Translations under genes and position numbers: made by a program
The notes under the pieces: model-generated
Seen by the model: the letters and a program-made list of their open reading frames with translations, nothing else
The model's database searches: none
What the model was told of the DNA's origin: nothing
Assembly (NCBI GenBank): GCA_945874535.1
Contig: CAMCGZ010000004.1
Location: forward strand, 62,001 to 126,000
DNA: 64,000 bases
Origin: Bdellovibrio sp. ZAP7
Lineage (GTDB): Bacteria > Bdellovibrionota > UBA1018 > CAIMNF01
Direction: 5' to 3'
Shown: piece by piece, positions 40,045-52,225 of the stretch
How positions within the stretch are numbered: position 1 is the first letter of the stretch
Layout: each line of letters begins with the position of its first letter

Positions 40045-40129
40045 TGGTGCGGCCGACTGGACTTGAACCAGCACACCTCTCGGTATACGCCCCTCAAACG
40101 TACGTGTCTACCAATTCCACCACGGCCGC
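40045..40129 (-). tRNA. tRNA-Leu (GAG)
   Basis: An 85-nt tRNA with encoded CCA (40045-40047 on the complement). The acceptor stem GCGGCCG/CGGCCGC is perfect, the anticodon stem is TACGT/GCGTA with loop TTGAGGG, giving anticodon GAG for CUC. A long variable arm marks it as class II. T-loop GTTCAAGTC is present. Confidence 0.97.
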
Positions 40130-42476: not shown

Positions 42477-42539
42477 TGAGTCGTCAAATGGTCTCAGACT
42501 TCGGACAAAAAACAACAGCTTTTTGACTGAGTCGTCAAA
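42477..42539. repeat. Two 12-bp direct repeats upstream of the metalloprotease
   Basis: TGAGTCGTCAAA occurs at 42477-42488 and 42528-42539, 51 bp apart. The second copy overlaps the stop of the ABC binding-protein gene. The reverse strand reads TTTGACGACTCA, containing a -35-like TTGACG. Regulatory role is only possible. Confidence 0.33.
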
Positions 42540-43485
42540 ATCCATCCCGGTAAAAGCCCGAAACATCCATGCCCGACTTCACCAATTTGAGTTCCTGGAG
42601 CTGCTCATACAAGCGCTCCCAACGCTTTTTCTCCATGGAACCGAGCTTTTTTTTGCGTGAATCCGAGCTTTCAATGAATCGCTTCTGGATTTGAGCTCCC
42701 TCCTCGAAAGTCGCAAGGTCCATGCTCGGATTGAGCTTTTGCATGGCGGTATTCGTTTTTCCGGGAGACTGAAGATAGGCCTTCCAGCCATCGCGCGTAG
42801 CGGCAATGAAGCGTTTTACGCGTTCGGAGTTCTCTTTCAAAGTGTCTTCATGAACGATCACCACGGCCAGATAGGGATTGAAACCGGACTCCGAAATGAG
42901 CAGGGTCCGGGGCTTCTTCCCTTCCCGGCGTGCGGCAATGGGCTCAGCGGTGATGAAGCATTGCTGGGAAAACAGCGGATCCCTCAGAAACGAAGTGATC
43001 CCGCCCGTGTAGGGAACGATCGATGCAGTGACCGGAGCATACTGTTTCTCCAGCCAAAGGGTGTAAGGTAGCCCCTTCTGCAGGGCGATTTTCCCTGGCG
43101 TTTGGAAAAGCTCCTTCAAAGTCTTGATCCCCCGCTCTTCGTGCACCATGAACCCTTGAGGATCCTCTTGATACACGGCAAACAGAGCGGTCACTTTCGC
43201 CCCCTGACTGCGCGCCAGGATGATTTCATCGGCTGCGGCGATCCCGAATTCCACTTTCTTCGCTGCCACCATCTGAGTCACGGGCTGACCGGCGCCTCCC
43301 GGCAAAATCGAGACTTTCAGGCCGGAACGCTCGTAAGCCCCACCGAGCAATGCCTCGTAAAATCCCCCGAACTCGGGCTCGGGTTTCCAATTCAGGGCCA
43401 GATCCTGGGCACCGGAATACGAAGTCAAAAAAAGGGCCACATACCCTGCGAACAGGGCAATCTCAATTTTCCGGAGTTTTCTCAT
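42535..43485 (-). CDS. ABC transporter substrate-binding protein, NMT1/THI5/SsuA-like
   Basis: A 316-aa periplasmic binding protein with signal peptide (hydrophobic residues 8-24). LNWKPEPEFGGFYEA and VEFGIAAADEIILARSQGAKV are typical of the NMT1/THI5-like family, which binds aminopyrimidines, riboflavin-type flavins, sulfonates or taurine. The HMP-synthase CCCFC motif is absent, so it is a binder, not an enzyme. Start overlaps the permease gene by 23 nt. Gene order with two PTPS-family genes suggests a pterin or pyrimidine-related ligand; this is inference. Confidence 0.88.
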   Translation of the reverse strand: MRKLRKIEIALFAGYVALFLTSYSGAQDLALNWKPEPEFGGFYEALLGGAYERSGLKVSILPGGAGQPVTQMVAAKKVEFGIAAADEIILARSQGAKVTALFAVYQEDPQGFMVHEERGIKTLKELFQTPGKIALQKGLPYTLWLEKQYAPVTASIVPYTGGITSFLRDPLFSQQCFITAEPIAARREGKKPRTLLISESGFNPYLAVVIVHEDTLKENSERVKRFIAATRDGWKAYLQSPGKTNTAMQKLNPSMDLATFEEGAQIQKRFIESSDSRKKKLGSMEKKRWERLYEQLQELKLVKSGMDVSGFYRDGF

Positions 43486-44215
43486 GCCGAGAGATTATCG
43501 GATGGACGAGCGAAAGACAGTAAAAAAACAGGATACCGAGAAGGGCCGCCAGCAGAACGGCTGCGAAGACACGGTCCACCCGCTGTTGGTTCCGCGAAGC
43601 ATCAACAAACCCCCCGAGACCGCTGCCCGATATGAATTCACCGACAATCGCACCGATAACCGACAGACCGGCGGCAATCCGGAAGCCTCCGAAGATTTGG
43701 GGAATCGCCGCCGGAAAACGCAAGCGGAATAGAATCTGCGCCGGGGTGGCATCCAGCATCCTGAACAGCTGCAAAGAAACCGGATCGGTCGAGGTGAGCC
43801 CCTGCACGCTGTTTGCGATCACAGGAAAAACCGACACGATGAACGCAGAGGCGATCACGGTGGGCATTCCGTATCCGAGCCAGATGACCAGCAAGGGTGC
43901 GATGGCGATGATCGGAACCGTCTGGAAAAAGATGGCGTAGGGATAAAACATCTTACGGATCCGGGTGGATGCCGCCAAGACGAGTCCGGCGAGAAGCCCG
44001 AAGGCCATGGAGAGCCCCAGCCCCGCACCTGCGGCGAGAACCGTTTCGAAAAAAGCCTTCCGGTACAGGGAGGCATCCTCGACCAGAGTCTTCAACACCG
44101 ATGAGGGAGACGGAAAAAGATAGGCGGGAAGCCATCCCGACCGACTGGCGAACTCTCCGAGCAGGGTGACTCCGAGCAAGGGGATCAAGGGTGCCAGACG
44201 CCACGAGGAAATCAT
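43463..44215 (-). CDS. ABC transporter permease, SsuC/TauC/ThiX-like
   Basis: A 250-aa inner-membrane protein with about six helices. ETVLAAGAGLGLSMAFGLLAG and the EAA-like loop LFRMLDATPAQILFRLRFPAAIP match the BPD_transp_1 family. VIGAIVGEFISGSGLGG is a hallmark of the nitrate/sulfonate/taurine/thiamine-precursor group. ATG 44215 overlaps the ATPase stop. Forms the importer with the genes on either side. Confidence 0.93.
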   Translation of the reverse strand: MISSWRLAPLIPLLGVTLLGEFASRSGWLPAYLFPSPSSVLKTLVEDASLYRKAFFETVLAAGAGLGLSMAFGLLAGLVLAASTRIRKMFYPYAIFFQTVPIIAIAPLLVIWLGYGMPTVIASAFIVSVFPVIANSVQGLTSTDPVSLQLFRMLDATPAQILFRLRFPAAIPQIFGGFRIAAGLSVIGAIVGEFISGSGLGGFVDASRNQQRVDRVFAAVLLAALLGILFFYCLSLVHPIISRHEKTPEN

Positions 44216-44943
44216 GTCCTTCCCTCTTTCAGAAGATTGAAGCACTGTTCGACCCGGGACAAAAACCGGACATCACCGCGAAGGGAGAGTGGCCGCTTGT
44301 CCCCGAGAGCCAAAGCCTCATCCAGAACCACCTTTCCGGGGCGCCCCTGAAACACCAGTACCCGGTCCCCGAGCCAAAGTCCTTCTGTGATGGAATGAGT
44401 GACCATCAGGATGGTCGACTTCATCTGCAGGAAAAGCTCCCGGAGTTCGAGTCCGAGTTCGATCCGGATCGGTTCATCGAGTGCTGCAAACGGCTCATCC
44501 AGAAGTAAAAGATCGGGATCGGTCACCAGAGCCCTTGCAAGGGAAACCCGCATTTTCTGCCCCCCGGACAATTGGGCGGGGAAGCTGCTCCTAAATGACA
44601 GAATGCCGAGCTTTTCCATCCAAGGGAGGGCTTTTTCCAAAGCCTCTTTCCGGTCAGCTCCGCGCAATCTCAAGGGGAGAATCACATTCTCCTCCACTGT
44701 TGACCAGGAGAGGAGCGCCGGTTCCTGAAAAACAAAACTCATCCTGGATCTCGGCACGGAGGTCTCGACCCCGCCTTCTCCGGGCACTTCGAGTCCCGCC
44801 ACGAGCTTAAGGAAGGTGCTTTTGCCGCACCCGGAAGGGCCGAGCAAGGTCACCCATTGCCCACGCTCCACCTCGAGATCGAGAGGTGCGAGGCCTCCTC
44901 CCGTTGACTCATAACGTTTGCCAAGCGCCCGGGCCCGAATCAT
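44212..44943 (-). CDS. ABC transporter ATP-binding protein of the same importer
   Basis: A 243-aa ATPase. Walker A GPSGCGKST (35-43), Q-loop VFQEPALLSW, signature LSGGQKMR, Walker B LLLLDEPFAALD, H-loop VTHSITEG. The VFQEPALLSW type is common in SsuB/TauB/ThiZ-like ATPases. Start 44943 overlaps the upstream PTPS-like stop (ATGA); an open frame to 45054 lies inside that gene. Energises import by the permease at 43463. Confidence 0.95.
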   Translation of the reverse strand: MIRARALGKRYESTGGGLAPLDLEVERGQWVTLLGPSGCGKSTFLKLVAGLEVPGEGGVETSVPRSRMSFVFQEPALLSWSTVEENVILPLRLRGADRKEALEKALPWMEKLGILSFRSSFPAQLSGGQKMRVSLARALVTDPDLLLLDEPFAALDEPIRIELGLELRELFLQMKSTILMVTHSITEGLWLGDRVLVFQGRPGKVVLDEALALGDKRPLSLRGDVRFLSRVEQCFNLLKEGRT

Positions 44944-45320
44944 CGGCTCAACCTGGCGCGTCCGCTCACTTTGCCCGAAAGATCGCATAAAGAAACCGCC
45001 ACCCGGGACAAAGGTGCGTCCGGGAGCTCCTCCGTGAGGCGCTTCCAGATCCAAGCTGTGAGGTTCTCACTGGTGGGAGAGACGGACAGCACACTGTTCA
45101 AGTGAGTCCCCTCCACTGCAGAAAAAATGCGATCGAGTGTGGACTGGAGAAACACCAAATCGATCAGGCGATCACTCGACAAAGGCCAGTCCGCCGAGAA
45201 CTCGGCTTCTACCTTCCACAGGTGGTAATGCGGGACTTCGAACCCGGTCAAACTGTGAGAAGCCCGGAAGGAGCTGAAAACCGTGAGTTCGAGGTGACGG
45301 GGTTCAGCGGGTGTTGACAC
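44940..45320 (-). CDS. 6-pyruvoyl-tetrahydropterin synthase/QueD-family protein 2 (diverged)
   Basis: A 126-aa COG0720 protein. Zinc ligands are kept as His22 (ASH) and His31/His33 (HYH). LIDLVFLQSTLDRIF, THLNSVL and PTSENLTAWIWKRL are family signatures. The catalytic Cys (or Glu) before the HxH pair is missing (EVPHYH), and the C-terminal Glu is not obvious, so activity may be altered. The start is GTG 45320, overlapping the upstream gene by 17 nt; an ATG at 45356 lies deeper inside it. Lies between PTPS 1 and the ABC importer. Confidence 0.8.
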   Translation of the reverse strand: MSTPAEPRHLELTVFSSFRASHSLTGFEVPHYHLWKVEAEFSADWPLSSDRLIDLVFLQSTLDRIFSAVEGTHLNSVLSVSPTSENLTAWIWKRLTEELPDAPLSRVAVSLCDLSGKVSGRARLSR

Positions 45321-45804
45321 GGGTGTAAACCGCCCCCTGTCCCGGCGCCTCTTCAATCAGGACTGAAACCGAGATCAAGTTCGGATTGTCGAGCAAATCA
45401 TCGAGCTCCGCGCGAAGAAACTCGTAATAGGCACGGGCCAGTGCCTCACAGGTGATGTTATCGACCGCCAGCAAAACCGTTTCATCGGTCGGGATGATGT
45501 ATCTCTTCCCGCATAACTTGAACTCGTGGGAGGCCCGAGTCGTTTTGATTTTCTGATAAAAGGGATTCTTGGTGGCAATCAGGACTTTCTCATCCCATAG
45601 CCCAGCGATTTTTTTCATGGCCGATTTGAAATCCGAAAAAGGAATCAGATTCTCGAAAGAAGCATCCCGGAGGACTACCGACAAGGAGGGTTGGTATTGA
45701 TGTCCGTGAAGAGCTTCCTTGCTTCCGTCCAAAAAGACGGTCATGTGGCTGGCGGAGAACTTCAAGGCCTCTTTTCGAATGCGAAGTTCATAATGTTCAG
45801 GCAT
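45304..45804 (-). CDS. 6-pyruvoyl-tetrahydropterin synthase-family protein 1 (PTPS-III-like)
   Basis: A 166-aa COG0720 protein. The zinc triad is His20 (ASH), His33 and His35 (HGH). The residue pattern before it is E30-A-L-H-G-H, i.e. ExxHGH, in place of the CxxxHGH of QueD. As I recall, that swap marks PTPS-III, which turns dihydroneopterin triphosphate into 6-hydroxymethyl-dihydropterin, bypassing FolB. The late LIEEAPGQGAVY holds the conserved Glu. ATG 45804 is only 26 nt from the divergent sepiapterin reductase start. First gene of a five-gene operon. Confidence 0.88.
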   Translation of the reverse strand: MPEHYELRIRKEALKFSASHMTVFLDGSKEALHGHQYQPSLSVVLRDASFENLIPFSDFKSAMKKIAGLWDEKVLIATKNPFYQKIKTTRASHEFKLCGKRYIIPTDETVLLAVDNITCEALARAYYEFLRAELDDLLDNPNLISVSVLIEEAPGQGAVYTRVNTR

Positions 45805-45820
45805 AGTCCGGATCATACCA
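45805..45820 (-). promoter_or_regulatory. Extended -10 promoter of the PTPS-ABC operon
   Basis: Minus strand: TGG-TATGAT (-10 at 45812-45817), a TGn extended -10, 7 nt before the ATG. No clear -35. The transcript would be leaderless. The whole gap to the divergent gene is 25 bp. Confidence 0.52.
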
Positions 45821-45829
45821 GAGGTACCC

Positions 45830-46579
45830 ATGAAATCACCAGCCTTGTTCGAAGACTTGAATATCTTGGTCACCGGTGCAGGTAAAGGATTGGGGCGCGC
45901 CGTGGTCGAGGAGCTCCTGGCCCGCCGGGATCGGTTCCCGCGGATCAAGATCGCACTCAGTGCCCGCAGCGAGTCCGACCTGAATGGTCTCGCTGAACTC
46001 GCCCGCGGATCGGGCGTTGAGACTCTGATTCTTCCCGGCGACCTGGCTCAGGATCCGGTAGCGGGGGTCCGTCGGATCCAGAAAGCCTGGGGCCGGATCG
46101 ACGTGTTGATCCACTCTGCCGGAGTGGGCCGCTTCGGAGATTTTGGAACCTATACCCCCGACGATGTCGAGTTCGTCATCCGAACCAATGTCGATTCTAC
46201 CTTTCTCCTGTTACAAGAAACGTTCAATCTGATGAAAAATCAGACCCCGCAAGCAGGGCTGCGCGGGCAAATCCAGGTGATCACTTCGGTTGCGGCGGAA
46301 AAGCCCTTTGAACACAGTGCCCTCTATTGCATGAGCAAGTACGCTCAAAGAGGGCTGCTCGAAGTGATGCGGATTCCTGCGGCCAAAGAAAAGATCCGCA
46401 TCCTCGATGTCCGCTCAGGAGCAGCGCTCACCCCGATGTGGGGTGCTGTGGAGCCCGGCATGGAGGCCCGCATGATGAAACCCTCGGATGTGGCCGGTGC
46501 AATGGTAGATGCTCTGTTGCTGAACGCCCGAGCCACGATCGAAACCCTCACGATCCGTCCGGTCGGAGGGGACATCTGA
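45830..46579 (+). CDS. Sepiapterin reductase-like SDR
   Basis: A 249-aa classical SDR. GAGKGLG (16-22) binds NADP, HSAGVG follows, and the catalytic Ser153, Tyr166-x3-Lys170 (SALYCMSKYAQRG) are intact. LTPMWGAVEPGMEARMMKP and the C-terminal LTIRPVGGDI closely resemble, as I recall, the bacterial (Chlorobium-type) sepiapterin reductase. That enzyme reduces 6-pyruvoyl-tetrahydropterin to (threo-)tetrahydrobiopterin. AGAGG 5 nt upstream of the ATG serves as ribosome site. Divergent from two PTPS-family genes, which makes the pterin role likely. Confidence 0.86.
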   Translation: MKSPALFEDLNILVTGAGKGLGRAVVEELLARRDRFPRIKIALSARSESDLNGLAELARGSGVETLILPGDLAQDPVAGVRRIQKAWGRIDVLIHSAGVGRFGDFGTYTPDDVEFVIRTNVDSTFLLLQETFNLMKNQTPQAGLRGQIQVITSVAAEKPFEHSALYCMSKYAQRGLLEVMRIPAAKEKIRILDVRSGAALTPMWGAVEPGMEARMMKPSDVAGAMVDALLLNARATIETLTIRPVGGDI

Positions 46580-46583
46580 TTCC

Positions 46584-48296
46584 ATGTTGTTTCGAGCCCT
46601 TCTGACCGCTCTCCTCTGCCTAGCTCAGTCCATGGAAACGCATGCGGAGACCAGCGAATTCCGATTGCCCCCTGTCACGATCACGGGGGATGCGAGCTTC
46701 GAAATGCTTCGCAGGGAAACCTATCTCCCATCCATTCAAGTCCCCCTCGACGCCGCTCCCGGAGCGGTTCTCGACTCTCTCAGCAGGTTTTCTCTTTTCC
46801 CGCCCCAGAACTACGGATACCCGGCTGGAGCCAGCGGTCTGAGTCTCGGAGGACGGAGCATTGAAGACACCCAAGTCACCACTCTCGGAGTCCCCCTGAA
46901 CCTGCCACAGGGGGGCGGACCGGATCTGTCCACCTTCCCCGGATTCCTCTGGTCGGAGGCCCTGGTCGGATCGTCCACGGGCTCCGCAGGATTCTCACCG
47001 TCCGCAGCTGCCGGTTCCATCGAACTGGTACCCTGGACACGTTCCCGGATCACAGAAAATTCTGGGCCTGATTCACGCTTCACCAGCTCGGCGGACCGGC
47101 AACTTCAAACCCTCTCGATCGGGACCCGCAAGGATACGATCGCCATGTTGGCCGGAGTCAGCTCAGGAATGCTCCGCGGGCCGTCCGGCTCCTTGAGTTA
47201 CGAGTTCATGAGGTCCTCCATCCATCGCTCCCGCTTTCACATTCTCGGTTCGGATCTCGAGGGGGATGTGCCCGGCGGAGGCATCAAACGGAGTCGCAGA
47301 ATCCTTCCCGTTCTCGAAACCCGGACCCTGATCGCGCAAGGCACTGCACTTGCTAGCACCGCCTTCGCCGACCTCACCGACCTTTACGGAAACAGATCCG
47401 AACAGTTCGGTATCGAAAACTCTCTCACTTCGGGACCCTGGCTTCTGTCATTTTCCGCCCGCCACATCCATTTCAGGAACGAGGGCGAATACCGGGAGTG
47501 GCCCCTGCACGCCGGAGTCAGTCGCGAGTTCGGCCAGCGCGGGAAAATGAGGGTGCGCGCCGGGATCGATGCTGTCCGGGTCGAGGACACCGGAGTCGAG
47601 CCCGGAGGAAGGGTGTCGATCCGCTGGAACACCAGGGGACCGCTCACTCCGGTCCTCGAACTGTCTTCCATCGCCAAGATGCCCACCCTTTCCGCCCGGA
47701 GGTATGTCCTCGACACGGGATCCTACCGTTACCGGGGGAATCCGGGACTCCTGCCGGAGCGGGTTTGGTCCGGAGTTCTTGCGGTCGATCAGGTGGGCTC
47801 GAATTTCCAGAGCCGTTGGACATTGAAGTCCGAACTCAGAAACGACGCCCAGATCAACACTTCCGGCCGGCCCGAGAACACCACTTTGAACGCTGGTAAT
47901 GCCATGCTTTTCAGTGCGCAGGCAGATGCACGATTTGTTCTGTCTCCAGCCTGGACCCTGAGATCGGGCGCCCTCCTCAGTTGGTCCCGGCTCGATGCCA
48001 CTGGACTCGCCTACCCGGACCTGCCTCCGTTCGCATGGAACGGAGGATTGGAAATCGGCCTCGGAGATGAATTCAAGCTCGAAACGGATGCACGGTACCT
48101 CGGCGACTCCACCGCATTTGACGGTTCGGCCCATCCGGCCTATTTTCTGGTCGATCAACAGATCCGCTGGTTTCCGGCACAGGACCTTGAGCTGAGGGCG
48201 GGCGTGATCAATCTATTTGATGAGCGTGCACAAATGGTCGTCGGCTTCCCGCTCCCCGGACGCTTGATCCGTGCGTCGGTCAGCGCCGGATTCTGA
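46584..48296 (+). CDS. TonB-dependent receptor-like outer-membrane protein
   Basis: A 570-aa precursor with signal peptide (LLTALLCLAQSMETHA). Residues about 50-150 look like a plug (SLSRFSLFPPQNYGYPAG, LGGRSIEDTQVTTLGVPLN). The rest is barrel-like with a typical C-terminal end, LRAGVINLFDERAQMVVGFPLPGRLIRASVSAGF (in part), ending in Phe. YRGNPGLLPERVWSG is a classic receptor motif. It is shorter than most receptors. It starts 4 nt after the sepiapterin reductase, suggesting the pair is one operon. Ligand unknown; a pterin or thiamine-like compound fits the neighbours. Confidence 0.87.
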   Translation: MLFRALLTALLCLAQSMETHAETSEFRLPPVTITGDASFEMLRRETYLPSIQVPLDAAPGAVLDSLSRFSLFPPQNYGYPAGASGLSLGGRSIEDTQVTTLGVPLNLPQGGGPDLSTFPGFLWSEALVGSSTGSAGFSPSAAAGSIELVPWTRSRITENSGPDSRFTSSADRQLQTLSIGTRKDTIAMLAGVSSGMLRGPSGSLSYEFMRSSIHRSRFHILGSDLEGDVPGGGIKRSRRILPVLETRTLIAQGTALASTAFADLTDLYGNRSEQFGIENSLTSGPWLLSFSARHIHFRNEGEYREWPLHAGVSREFGQRGKMRVRAGIDAVRVEDTGVEPGGRVSIRWNTRGPLTPVLELSSIAKMPTLSARRYVLDTGSYRYRGNPGLLPERVWSGVLAVDQVGSNFQSRWTLKSELRNDAQINTSGRPENTTLNAGNAMLFSAQADARFVLSPAWTLRSGALLSWSRLDATGLAYPDLPPFAWNGGLEIGLGDEFKLETDARYLGDSTAFDGSAHPAYFLVDQQIRWFPAQDLELRAGVINLFDERAQMVVGFPLPGRLIRASVSAGF

Positions 48297-52150: not shown

Positions 52151-52225
52151 TGGCTCGTAGCTCAGTGGTAGAGCACTACCTTGACATGGTAGGGGTCGCT
52201 GGTTCGATCCCAGTCGAGCCAACCA
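52151..52225 (+). tRNA. tRNA-Val (GAC)
   Basis: A 75-nt tRNA with encoded CCA. Acceptor TGGCTCG/CGAGCCA, D-arm GCTCAGTGGTAGAGC, anticodon stem CTACC/GGTAG with loop TTGACAT (anticodon GAC), T-arm GCTGG/CCAGT with TTCGATC. The DCC-family gene begins 27 nt later and may be co-transcribed. Confidence 0.98.

What the first reader, a model, noticed from the sequence alone, without database searches (positions are those of the whole stretch)
42535..48296. Divergent pterin synthesis and transport locus
One side encodes PTPS-III-like protein, a diverged PTPS, and an ABC importer with an NMT1/THI5-like binder. The other side, 25 bp away, encodes a sepiapterin reductase-like SDR and a TonB-type receptor. 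No folate or queuosine gene is close. The layout suggests a tetrahydrobiopterin-type cofactor pathway combined with uptake of a pterin or precursor across both membranes, which I do not know as a described system.
Basis: partly seen in the sequence, partly recalled or inferred. Interest (0 to 1): 0.74.

Follow-up and report, generated by a model that had tools for sequence, protein, structure and literature searches.

The report
Biopterin-type gene cluster beside a transporter
In a group of uncultured Bdellovibrio-like bacteria, two odd pterin enzymes and a sepiapterin-reductase look-alike probably make a biopterin-type cofactor and stand in for a missing queuosine enzyme, while the importer next door is more likely a thiamin-type transporter that was already there.

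Summary
The genes exist as described and are conserved in all 12 genomes examined of this genus; the reductase and the receptor are each missing from one. The cofactor half of the interpretation gains support. The SDR matches Chlorobium tepidum sepiapterin reductase far above any other solved SDR and keeps its two pterin-sandwiching aromatics. PTPS1-like genes have an SDR neighbour in 39 of 80 loci (background 5 of 514 ORFs). One distant cluster reads aromatic-amino-acid hydroxylase, SDR, PTPS1, PTPS2. The genus has FolE but no FolB or HPPK, so PTPS1, despite its PTPS-III motif, is not the usual folate bypass. A second role was missed. Every QueC-bearing genome tested has either a canonical QueD or PTPS2, never both or neither (22 vs 8; 0 overlap in 55 genomes), although PTPS2 lacks QueD's catalytic Cys loop. 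The pterin-uptake half is not supported. The ABC operon occurs at the same site in a sister genus lacking all PTPS genes and stands alone elsewhere; its binder resembles thiamin/pyrimidine binders. The receptor's role is unknown. All functions are inferred.

The parts
45304..45804 (-). PTPS1: 166-aa Glu-type (ExxHGH) PTPS-family protein, relative of Plasmodium PTPS; proposed source of 6-pyruvoyl-tetrahydropterin
   Evidence: Pfam PF01242 2.1e-12; best PDB match 1y13/2a0s Plasmodium PTPS 2e-22 over full length; Zn His20/33/35, Glu30, Glu120 and Glu152 invariant in 80 further loci, partly preselected by the scan pattern
44940..45320 (-). PTPS2: about 126-aa QueD-fold protein without the catalytic Cys loop; proposed replacement of QueD
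   Evidence: Pfam PF01242 2.3e-11; QueD best match by profile and fold; exactly one of PTPS2 or canonical QueD in every QueC+ genome tested
45830..46579 (+). SDR: sepiapterin-reductase-type enzyme of the C. tepidum kind
   Evidence: 2bd0 182 bits, next solved SDR 79 bits; Phe-99 and Trp-196 equivalents and YxxxK conserved (PMC7520308)
46584..48296 (+). probable TonB-dependent outer-membrane receptor, 4 bp after the SDR; substrate unknown
   Evidence: PF00593 25.8 bits (cut-off 27), NF049946 9e-5; beside the locus in 11 of 12 genomes
44212..44943 (-). ABC ATPase, ATGA-coupled to PTPS2
   Evidence: PF00005 2.6e-31; overlap
43463..44215 (-). ABC permease (longest ORF to 44245; ATG at 44215 overlaps the ATPase stop as ATGA)
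   Evidence: PF00528 2.8e-25; sequence
42535..43485 (-). ABC substrate-binding protein, NMT1/THI5 family, probably for thiamin or a pyrimidine precursor
   Evidence: PF09084 4e-29; nearest folds 4nmy thiamin-bound, 3ix1 FAMP binder, THI5; orthologous operon without PTPS genes

Best explanation
The locus is a pterin-synthesis module joined to an older, unrelated importer. GTP cyclohydrolase I (encoded elsewhere) makes dihydroneopterin triphosphate. PTPS1 converts it to 6-pyruvoyl-tetrahydropterin (inferred). The sepiapterin-reductase-type SDR reduces that to a tetrahydrobiopterin, by its pocket residues probably the L-threo form (inferred), the cofactor of the ~570-aa aromatic amino acid hydroxylase encoded elsewhere. 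PTPS2, always beside PTPS1, takes over the QueD step for queuosine, either by cleaving the PTPS1 product to 6-carboxy-tetrahydropterin or as part of a PTPS1/PTPS2 complex (inferred). The ABC importer is a pre-existing thiamin/pyrimidine-type transporter that the PTPS genes came to adjoin; the receptor's substrate is unknown. Shown here: gene content, conservation, residue signatures, neighbourhood and co-occurrence. Inferred: all reactions. Rough confidence by part: BH4-type module 0.75, PTPS2 as QueD replacement 0.65, importer not for pterins 0.75.
For: SDR-2bd0 match and conserved Phe-99/Trp-196 (roles in PMC7520308). SDR adjacent to PTPS1 in 39/80 loci vs 5/514 background ORFs; SR-type and non-SR-type SDRs occupy this place. 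L108 cluster hydroxylase-SDR-PTPS1-PTPS2, Biopterin_H 7.5e-31. Hydroxylase found in 11/12 genus genomes, and the window's own copy is cut by a contig end. FolE in 10/12 incl. own; no FolB and no HPPK in 12/12. A Glu-type PTPS (Plasmodium) makes 6-pyruvoyl-tetrahydropterin and 6-hydroxymethyl-dihydropterin in comparable amounts (PMC2229834). QueD/PTPS2: 22 vs 8 of 30 QueC+ genomes, none with both or neither; 23 vs 28 of 55 without overlap; two species of one genus differ (G047 PTPS2, G048 QueD); QueE present in the window genome; QueD sits beside QueC in G015 but is gone from the same gene neighbourhood in G000 and G003. Importer: same slot without PTPS genes in G012, stand-alone in G039 and G043; binder fold nearest to 4nmy/3ix1/THI5.
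Against: PTPS1 carries the motif published for the folate-type PTPS-III (ExxHGH), not the BH4-type CxxxxxHGH (PMC5041015), so its product may be 6-hydroxymethyl-dihydropterin. The hydroxylase also occurs in genomes without PTPS1, so the link is not exclusive, and only one cluster joins them. One genus member lacks the SDR, and two show no FolE (92% and 87% complete). 41 of 80 PTPS1 loci show no adjacent SDR. The QueC tree needs at least 5 QueD/PTPS2 switches, but well-supported branches force only one, so the independent evidence is thinner than the counts. Many genomes are incomplete MAGs.
Confidence: 0.58

Rival explanations
1. One reading: BH4-type synthesis combined with uptake of a pterin or precursor through the receptor and the ABC importer as one system.
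For: Gene order and translational coupling PTPS2-ATPase (ATGA); neighbourhood conserved in the genus. G007 keeps receptor, importer and both PTPS but lacks the SDR, and no FolE was found.
Against: The ABC operon occurs in a sister genus with no PTPS gene and no receptor beside it, at the same chromosomal slot, and alone in two further genomes. Binder is closest to thiamin/pyrimidine proteins. No receptor or importer accompanies PTPS1/2 outside the genus.
Confidence: 0.12
2. PTPS1 is an ordinary PTPS-III that bypasses FolB in folate synthesis.
For: ExxHGH signature; best PDB match Plasmodium PTPS; FolB absent from the genus.
Against: HPPK, the next folate enzyme, is absent from all 12 genus genomes but found in relatives, some of which carry both FolB and PTPS1/2. 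PTPS1 has SDR neighbours and one hydroxylase cluster.
Confidence: 0.12
3. PTPS1 and PTPS2 together serve only queuosine; the SDR does unrelated work.
For: PTPS2 tracks QueD loss exactly and PTPS2 always accompanies PTPS1.
Against: PTPS1 also occurs with a canonical QueD and no PTPS2 (G015, G019, G021, G051) and in a QueC-lacking genome (G027), each with an SDR neighbour where inspected. The SDR is sepiapterin-reductase-like.
Confidence: 0.15

Closest known systems
Chlorobium tepidum sepiapterin reductase (PDB 2bd0), L-threo-BH4 forming
   Same: Full-length alignment, 182 bits; Phe-99, Trp-196 and YxxxK equivalents
   Different: Paired with a Glu-type PTPS across a 25-bp divergent gap; activity untested
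Plasmodium PTPS / PTPS-III (1y13, 2a0s)
   Same: Catalytic Glu in ExxHGH, same long insertion, zinc histidines
   Different: W-D-E instead of D-H at the dyad; no HPPK in the genus; SDR partner
E. coli QueD (PTPS-I, 4ntk)
   Same: Fold, zinc histidines, LN and PTxE motifs; present where canonical QueD is missing
   Different: Six-residue loop carrying the catalytic Cys is deleted and the dyad His is lost
ThiXYZ/THI5-type thiamin and pyrimidine importers (4nmy, 3ix1)
   Same: Binder fold and sequence; no ThiC in the genome
   Different: About 20% identity; no riboswitch found; ligand unknown

Membership tests
Sepiapterin reductase (C. tepidum type), for the SDR | SDR core with YxxxK and best match to the family | tested here: met
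Sepiapterin reductase (C. tepidum type), for the SDR | Phe-99 and Trp-196 that sandwich sepiapterin | tested here: met
   alignment; roles in PMC7520308
Sepiapterin reductase (C. tepidum type), for the SDR | reduces 6-pyruvoyl-tetrahydropterin or sepiapterin | not testable with these tools
   needs an enzyme assay
PTPS-II (BH4 type), for PTPS1 | CxxxxxHGH motif | tested here: not met
   no Cys; ExxHGH in 21/21
PTPS-II (BH4 type), for PTPS1 | co-occurrence with a sepiapterin reductase | tested here: met
PTPS-III (folate type), for PTPS1 | ExxHGH motif | tested here: met
   motif in PMC5041015
PTPS-III (folate type), for PTPS1 | works in a folate pathway that lacks FolB but has HPPK | tested here: not met
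   FolB and HPPK both absent from 12 genus genomes
QueD (PTPS-I), for PTPS2 | CxxxHGH motif with catalytic Cys and Asp-His dyad | tested here: not met
   loop deleted, His lost
QueD (PTPS-I), for PTPS2 | presence with QueE and QueC where no other QueD exists | tested here: met
Thiamin/pyrimidine binding protein, for the ABC binder | fold and nearest solved relatives | tested here: met
Thiamin/pyrimidine binding protein, for the ABC binder | ligand or TPP-riboswitch control | tested here: inconclusive
   no riboswitch in window or relatives; ligand not testable
TonB-dependent receptor, for 46584-48296 | barrel domain over curated cut-off | tested here: inconclusive
   25.8 vs 27 bits

The most novel reading that the evidence does not exclude
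A Glu-type PTPS (PTPS1) makes 6-pyruvoyl-tetrahydropterin as a branch point: a sepiapterin reductase turns it into biopterin, and a QueD-derived protein without QueD's catalytic Cys (PTPS2), acting on that intermediate or within a PTPS1/PTPS2 complex, turns it into the queuosine precursor. QueD's one-enzyme reaction would be split in two and shared with cofactor synthesis.
Probability: 0.35. Interest if true: 0.65.

Novelty: new variant of a known kind. Interest (0 to 1): 0.5.

Why it matters
The published PTPS motif rule would file PTPS1 under folate, yet its genomic setting points to biopterin. PTPS2 offers a testable answer to how many Bdellovibrionota with QueE and QueC manage without a canonical QueD. 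Both bear on automatic annotation of a family known for mis-annotation (PMC5041015). The ABC result is a caution that a conserved, translationally coupled neighbourhood need not be one pathway.

Tried and rejected
Folate use of PTPS1: rejected for this genus because HPPK is absent. Second FolE hit with an apparent in-frame TGA: the alignment ran past the natural stop of a diverged FolE paralog; no recoding. PTPS1-PTPS2 fusion suggested by shared open frames in some genomes: a stop codon separates them in L028 and L035. Missing hydroxylase in the window's genome: contig end, not loss. Riboswitch clue to the transporter's substrate: none found in the window or in ten related loci. ThiC as a discriminator for the importer: absent from 54 of 55 genomes, so uninformative as a contrast. 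Independent-pairs test of QueD/PTPS2 on the QueC tree: too few well-supported pairs to be significant. Literature searches for Bdellovibrio pterins found nothing relevant among the papers listed.

Full report
What is there. The seven ORFs are real and in the stated order. On the minus strand: PTPS1 (45804-45304), PTPS2 (probable GTG start 45320, to 44940), ABC ATPase, permease and NMT1-family binder, with overlapping ends. Across a 25-bp gap on the plus strand: the SDR and, 4 bp later, a probable TonB-dependent receptor whose barrel match falls just under the Pfam cut-off. dN/dS against two sister species is 0.01-0.10 where computable.

Conservation. The locus is syntenic in 12 genomes of one genus; G007 lacks the SDR and G004 shows no receptor in the 1.3 kb left beside its SDR. 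Named relatives are MAGs filed mostly as Bdellovibrionales, Oligoflexia or Proteobacteria. Outside the genus the PTPS1-PTPS2 pair persists in a second family without the importer or receptor.

PTPS1. It carries Glu at the position of the catalytic Cys (ExxHGH), the signature assigned to PTPS-III (PMC5041015), and matches Plasmodium PTPS over its full length including the insertion (2e-22), far better than QueD (1.5e-5). In Plasmodium this Glu enzyme makes 6-hydroxymethyl-dihydropterin and 6-pyruvoyl-tetrahydropterin in comparable amounts, and Cys at that place restores the conventional product alone (PMC2229834). PTPS1 has W-D-E where Plasmodium has D-H. All SDR-adjacent members keep Trp-Asp here, while 15 of the 41 others have Lys or Arg for Asp (the collection scan used patterns that include the Glu, so Glu conservation there is partly preselected). 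Folate use is unlikely in this genus: no FolB and no HPPK, both detected in relatives.

SDR. Among solved structures the best match is C. tepidum sepiapterin reductase at 182 bits; the next is 79. The alignment keeps Phe-99 and Trp-196, described as indispensable for substrate binding in that enzyme (PMC7520308). Across 80 PTPS1 loci from a separate collection, 39 have an SDR beside PTPS1 against 5 of 514 ORFs farther away. About half of these are the same type with the aromatic pair; the rest are other SDRs. On the PTPS1 tree the three states (SR type, other SDR, none) need 14 changes. Different SDRs next to the same PTPS suggest a shared role.

Cofactor user. A ~570-aa aromatic amino acid hydroxylase is found in 11 of 12 genus genomes. 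The window's genome seemed to lack it, but its contig C1 begins inside the hydroxylase gene, so the absence is an assembly gap. In L108 the order is hydroxylase, SDR, PTPS1, PTPS2. Against exclusivity, the hydroxylase also occurs in genomes without PTPS1.

PTPS2 and queuosine. PTPS2 folds like QueD (model pLDDT 96) and aligns best to E. coli QueD, but the six-residue loop holding the catalytic Cys is deleted and the dyad His is lost. In the order, PTPS2 (23 genomes) and a canonical QueD-scoring PTPS (28 genomes) never coincide. Of 33 genomes searched for QueC, 30 have it: 22 have PTPS2 and 8 a canonical QueD, none both or neither; the 3 without QueC have neither. In G015 QueD sits directly before QueC; in G000 and G003 the matching QueC neighbourhood lacks it. 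QueE is present in the window's genome. Two species of one genus differ (G047 PTPS2, G048 QueD). On a QueC tree 5 switches are needed on the best topology, but well-supported branches force only 1, so the pattern is clean while its statistical independence is limited. PTPS2 was always found with PTPS1. My reading is that PTPS2 works on a PTPS1 product or with PTPS1. That QueD also accepts 6-pyruvoyl-tetrahydropterin and sepiapterin is from memory, not checked here.

Importer. Orthologues of the ABC trio occur in G012 (same family, no PTPS gene), between the PP2C gene and gltX, the genes that bracket the whole locus in the window genus, and as separate operons in G039 and G043. The importer is therefore independent of the pterin genes and in this lineage probably older. 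The binder's nearest folds are a thiamin-bound protein (4nmy), the FAMP binder 3ix1 and THI5, and ThiC is absent, though it is absent from 54 of 55 genomes. No riboswitch was found. The receptor accompanies the SDR in this genus only, and nothing here shows its substrate.

Verdict. Observation confirmed. The cofactor half is supported, the uptake half is not, and a queuosine role was missed. All reactions are inferred from sequence and context and need enzyme assays.

Noticed in passing
L112:6898-8504 and L120:7980-10856 (Competibacteraceae / Gammaproteobacteria): PTPS1 lies beside GT4-type glycosyltransferases, an unassigned conserved protein and, in L120, a second PTPS-family gene; this may be a pterin-glycoside or other pterin pathway.
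   Followed up: partly
L053:4798-5589 (window genome contig C12): A second, diverged GTP cyclohydrolase I paralog, with a relative in several genus members.
   Followed up: partly
L134, L135, L145, L148-L153, L156-L160 (Kofleriaceae/Myxococcota): This group of PTPS1 relatives has no SDR neighbour; among loci without an SDR neighbour 15 of 41 carry Lys or Arg at the otherwise constant Asp71, hinting at another activity.
   Followed up: no
L028:3240-5506 (G007): Receptor directly faces PTPS1 with the SDR missing, and no FolE was found in this 92% complete genome; it may depend on outside pterin or be an assembly gap.
   Followed up: no
L175:5707-8470 (G039): The importer operon follows a monothiol-glutaredoxin-like gene at a 6-bp gap and precedes peroxiredoxin-like genes (named from sequence by eye).
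   Followed up: no
G017, G018, G025, G004 (L209-L212, L184): Two QueC copies of clearly different type in one genome.
   Followed up: no
window 52151-52222 (+) and 40048-40129 (-): Two tRNA genes.
   Followed up: no
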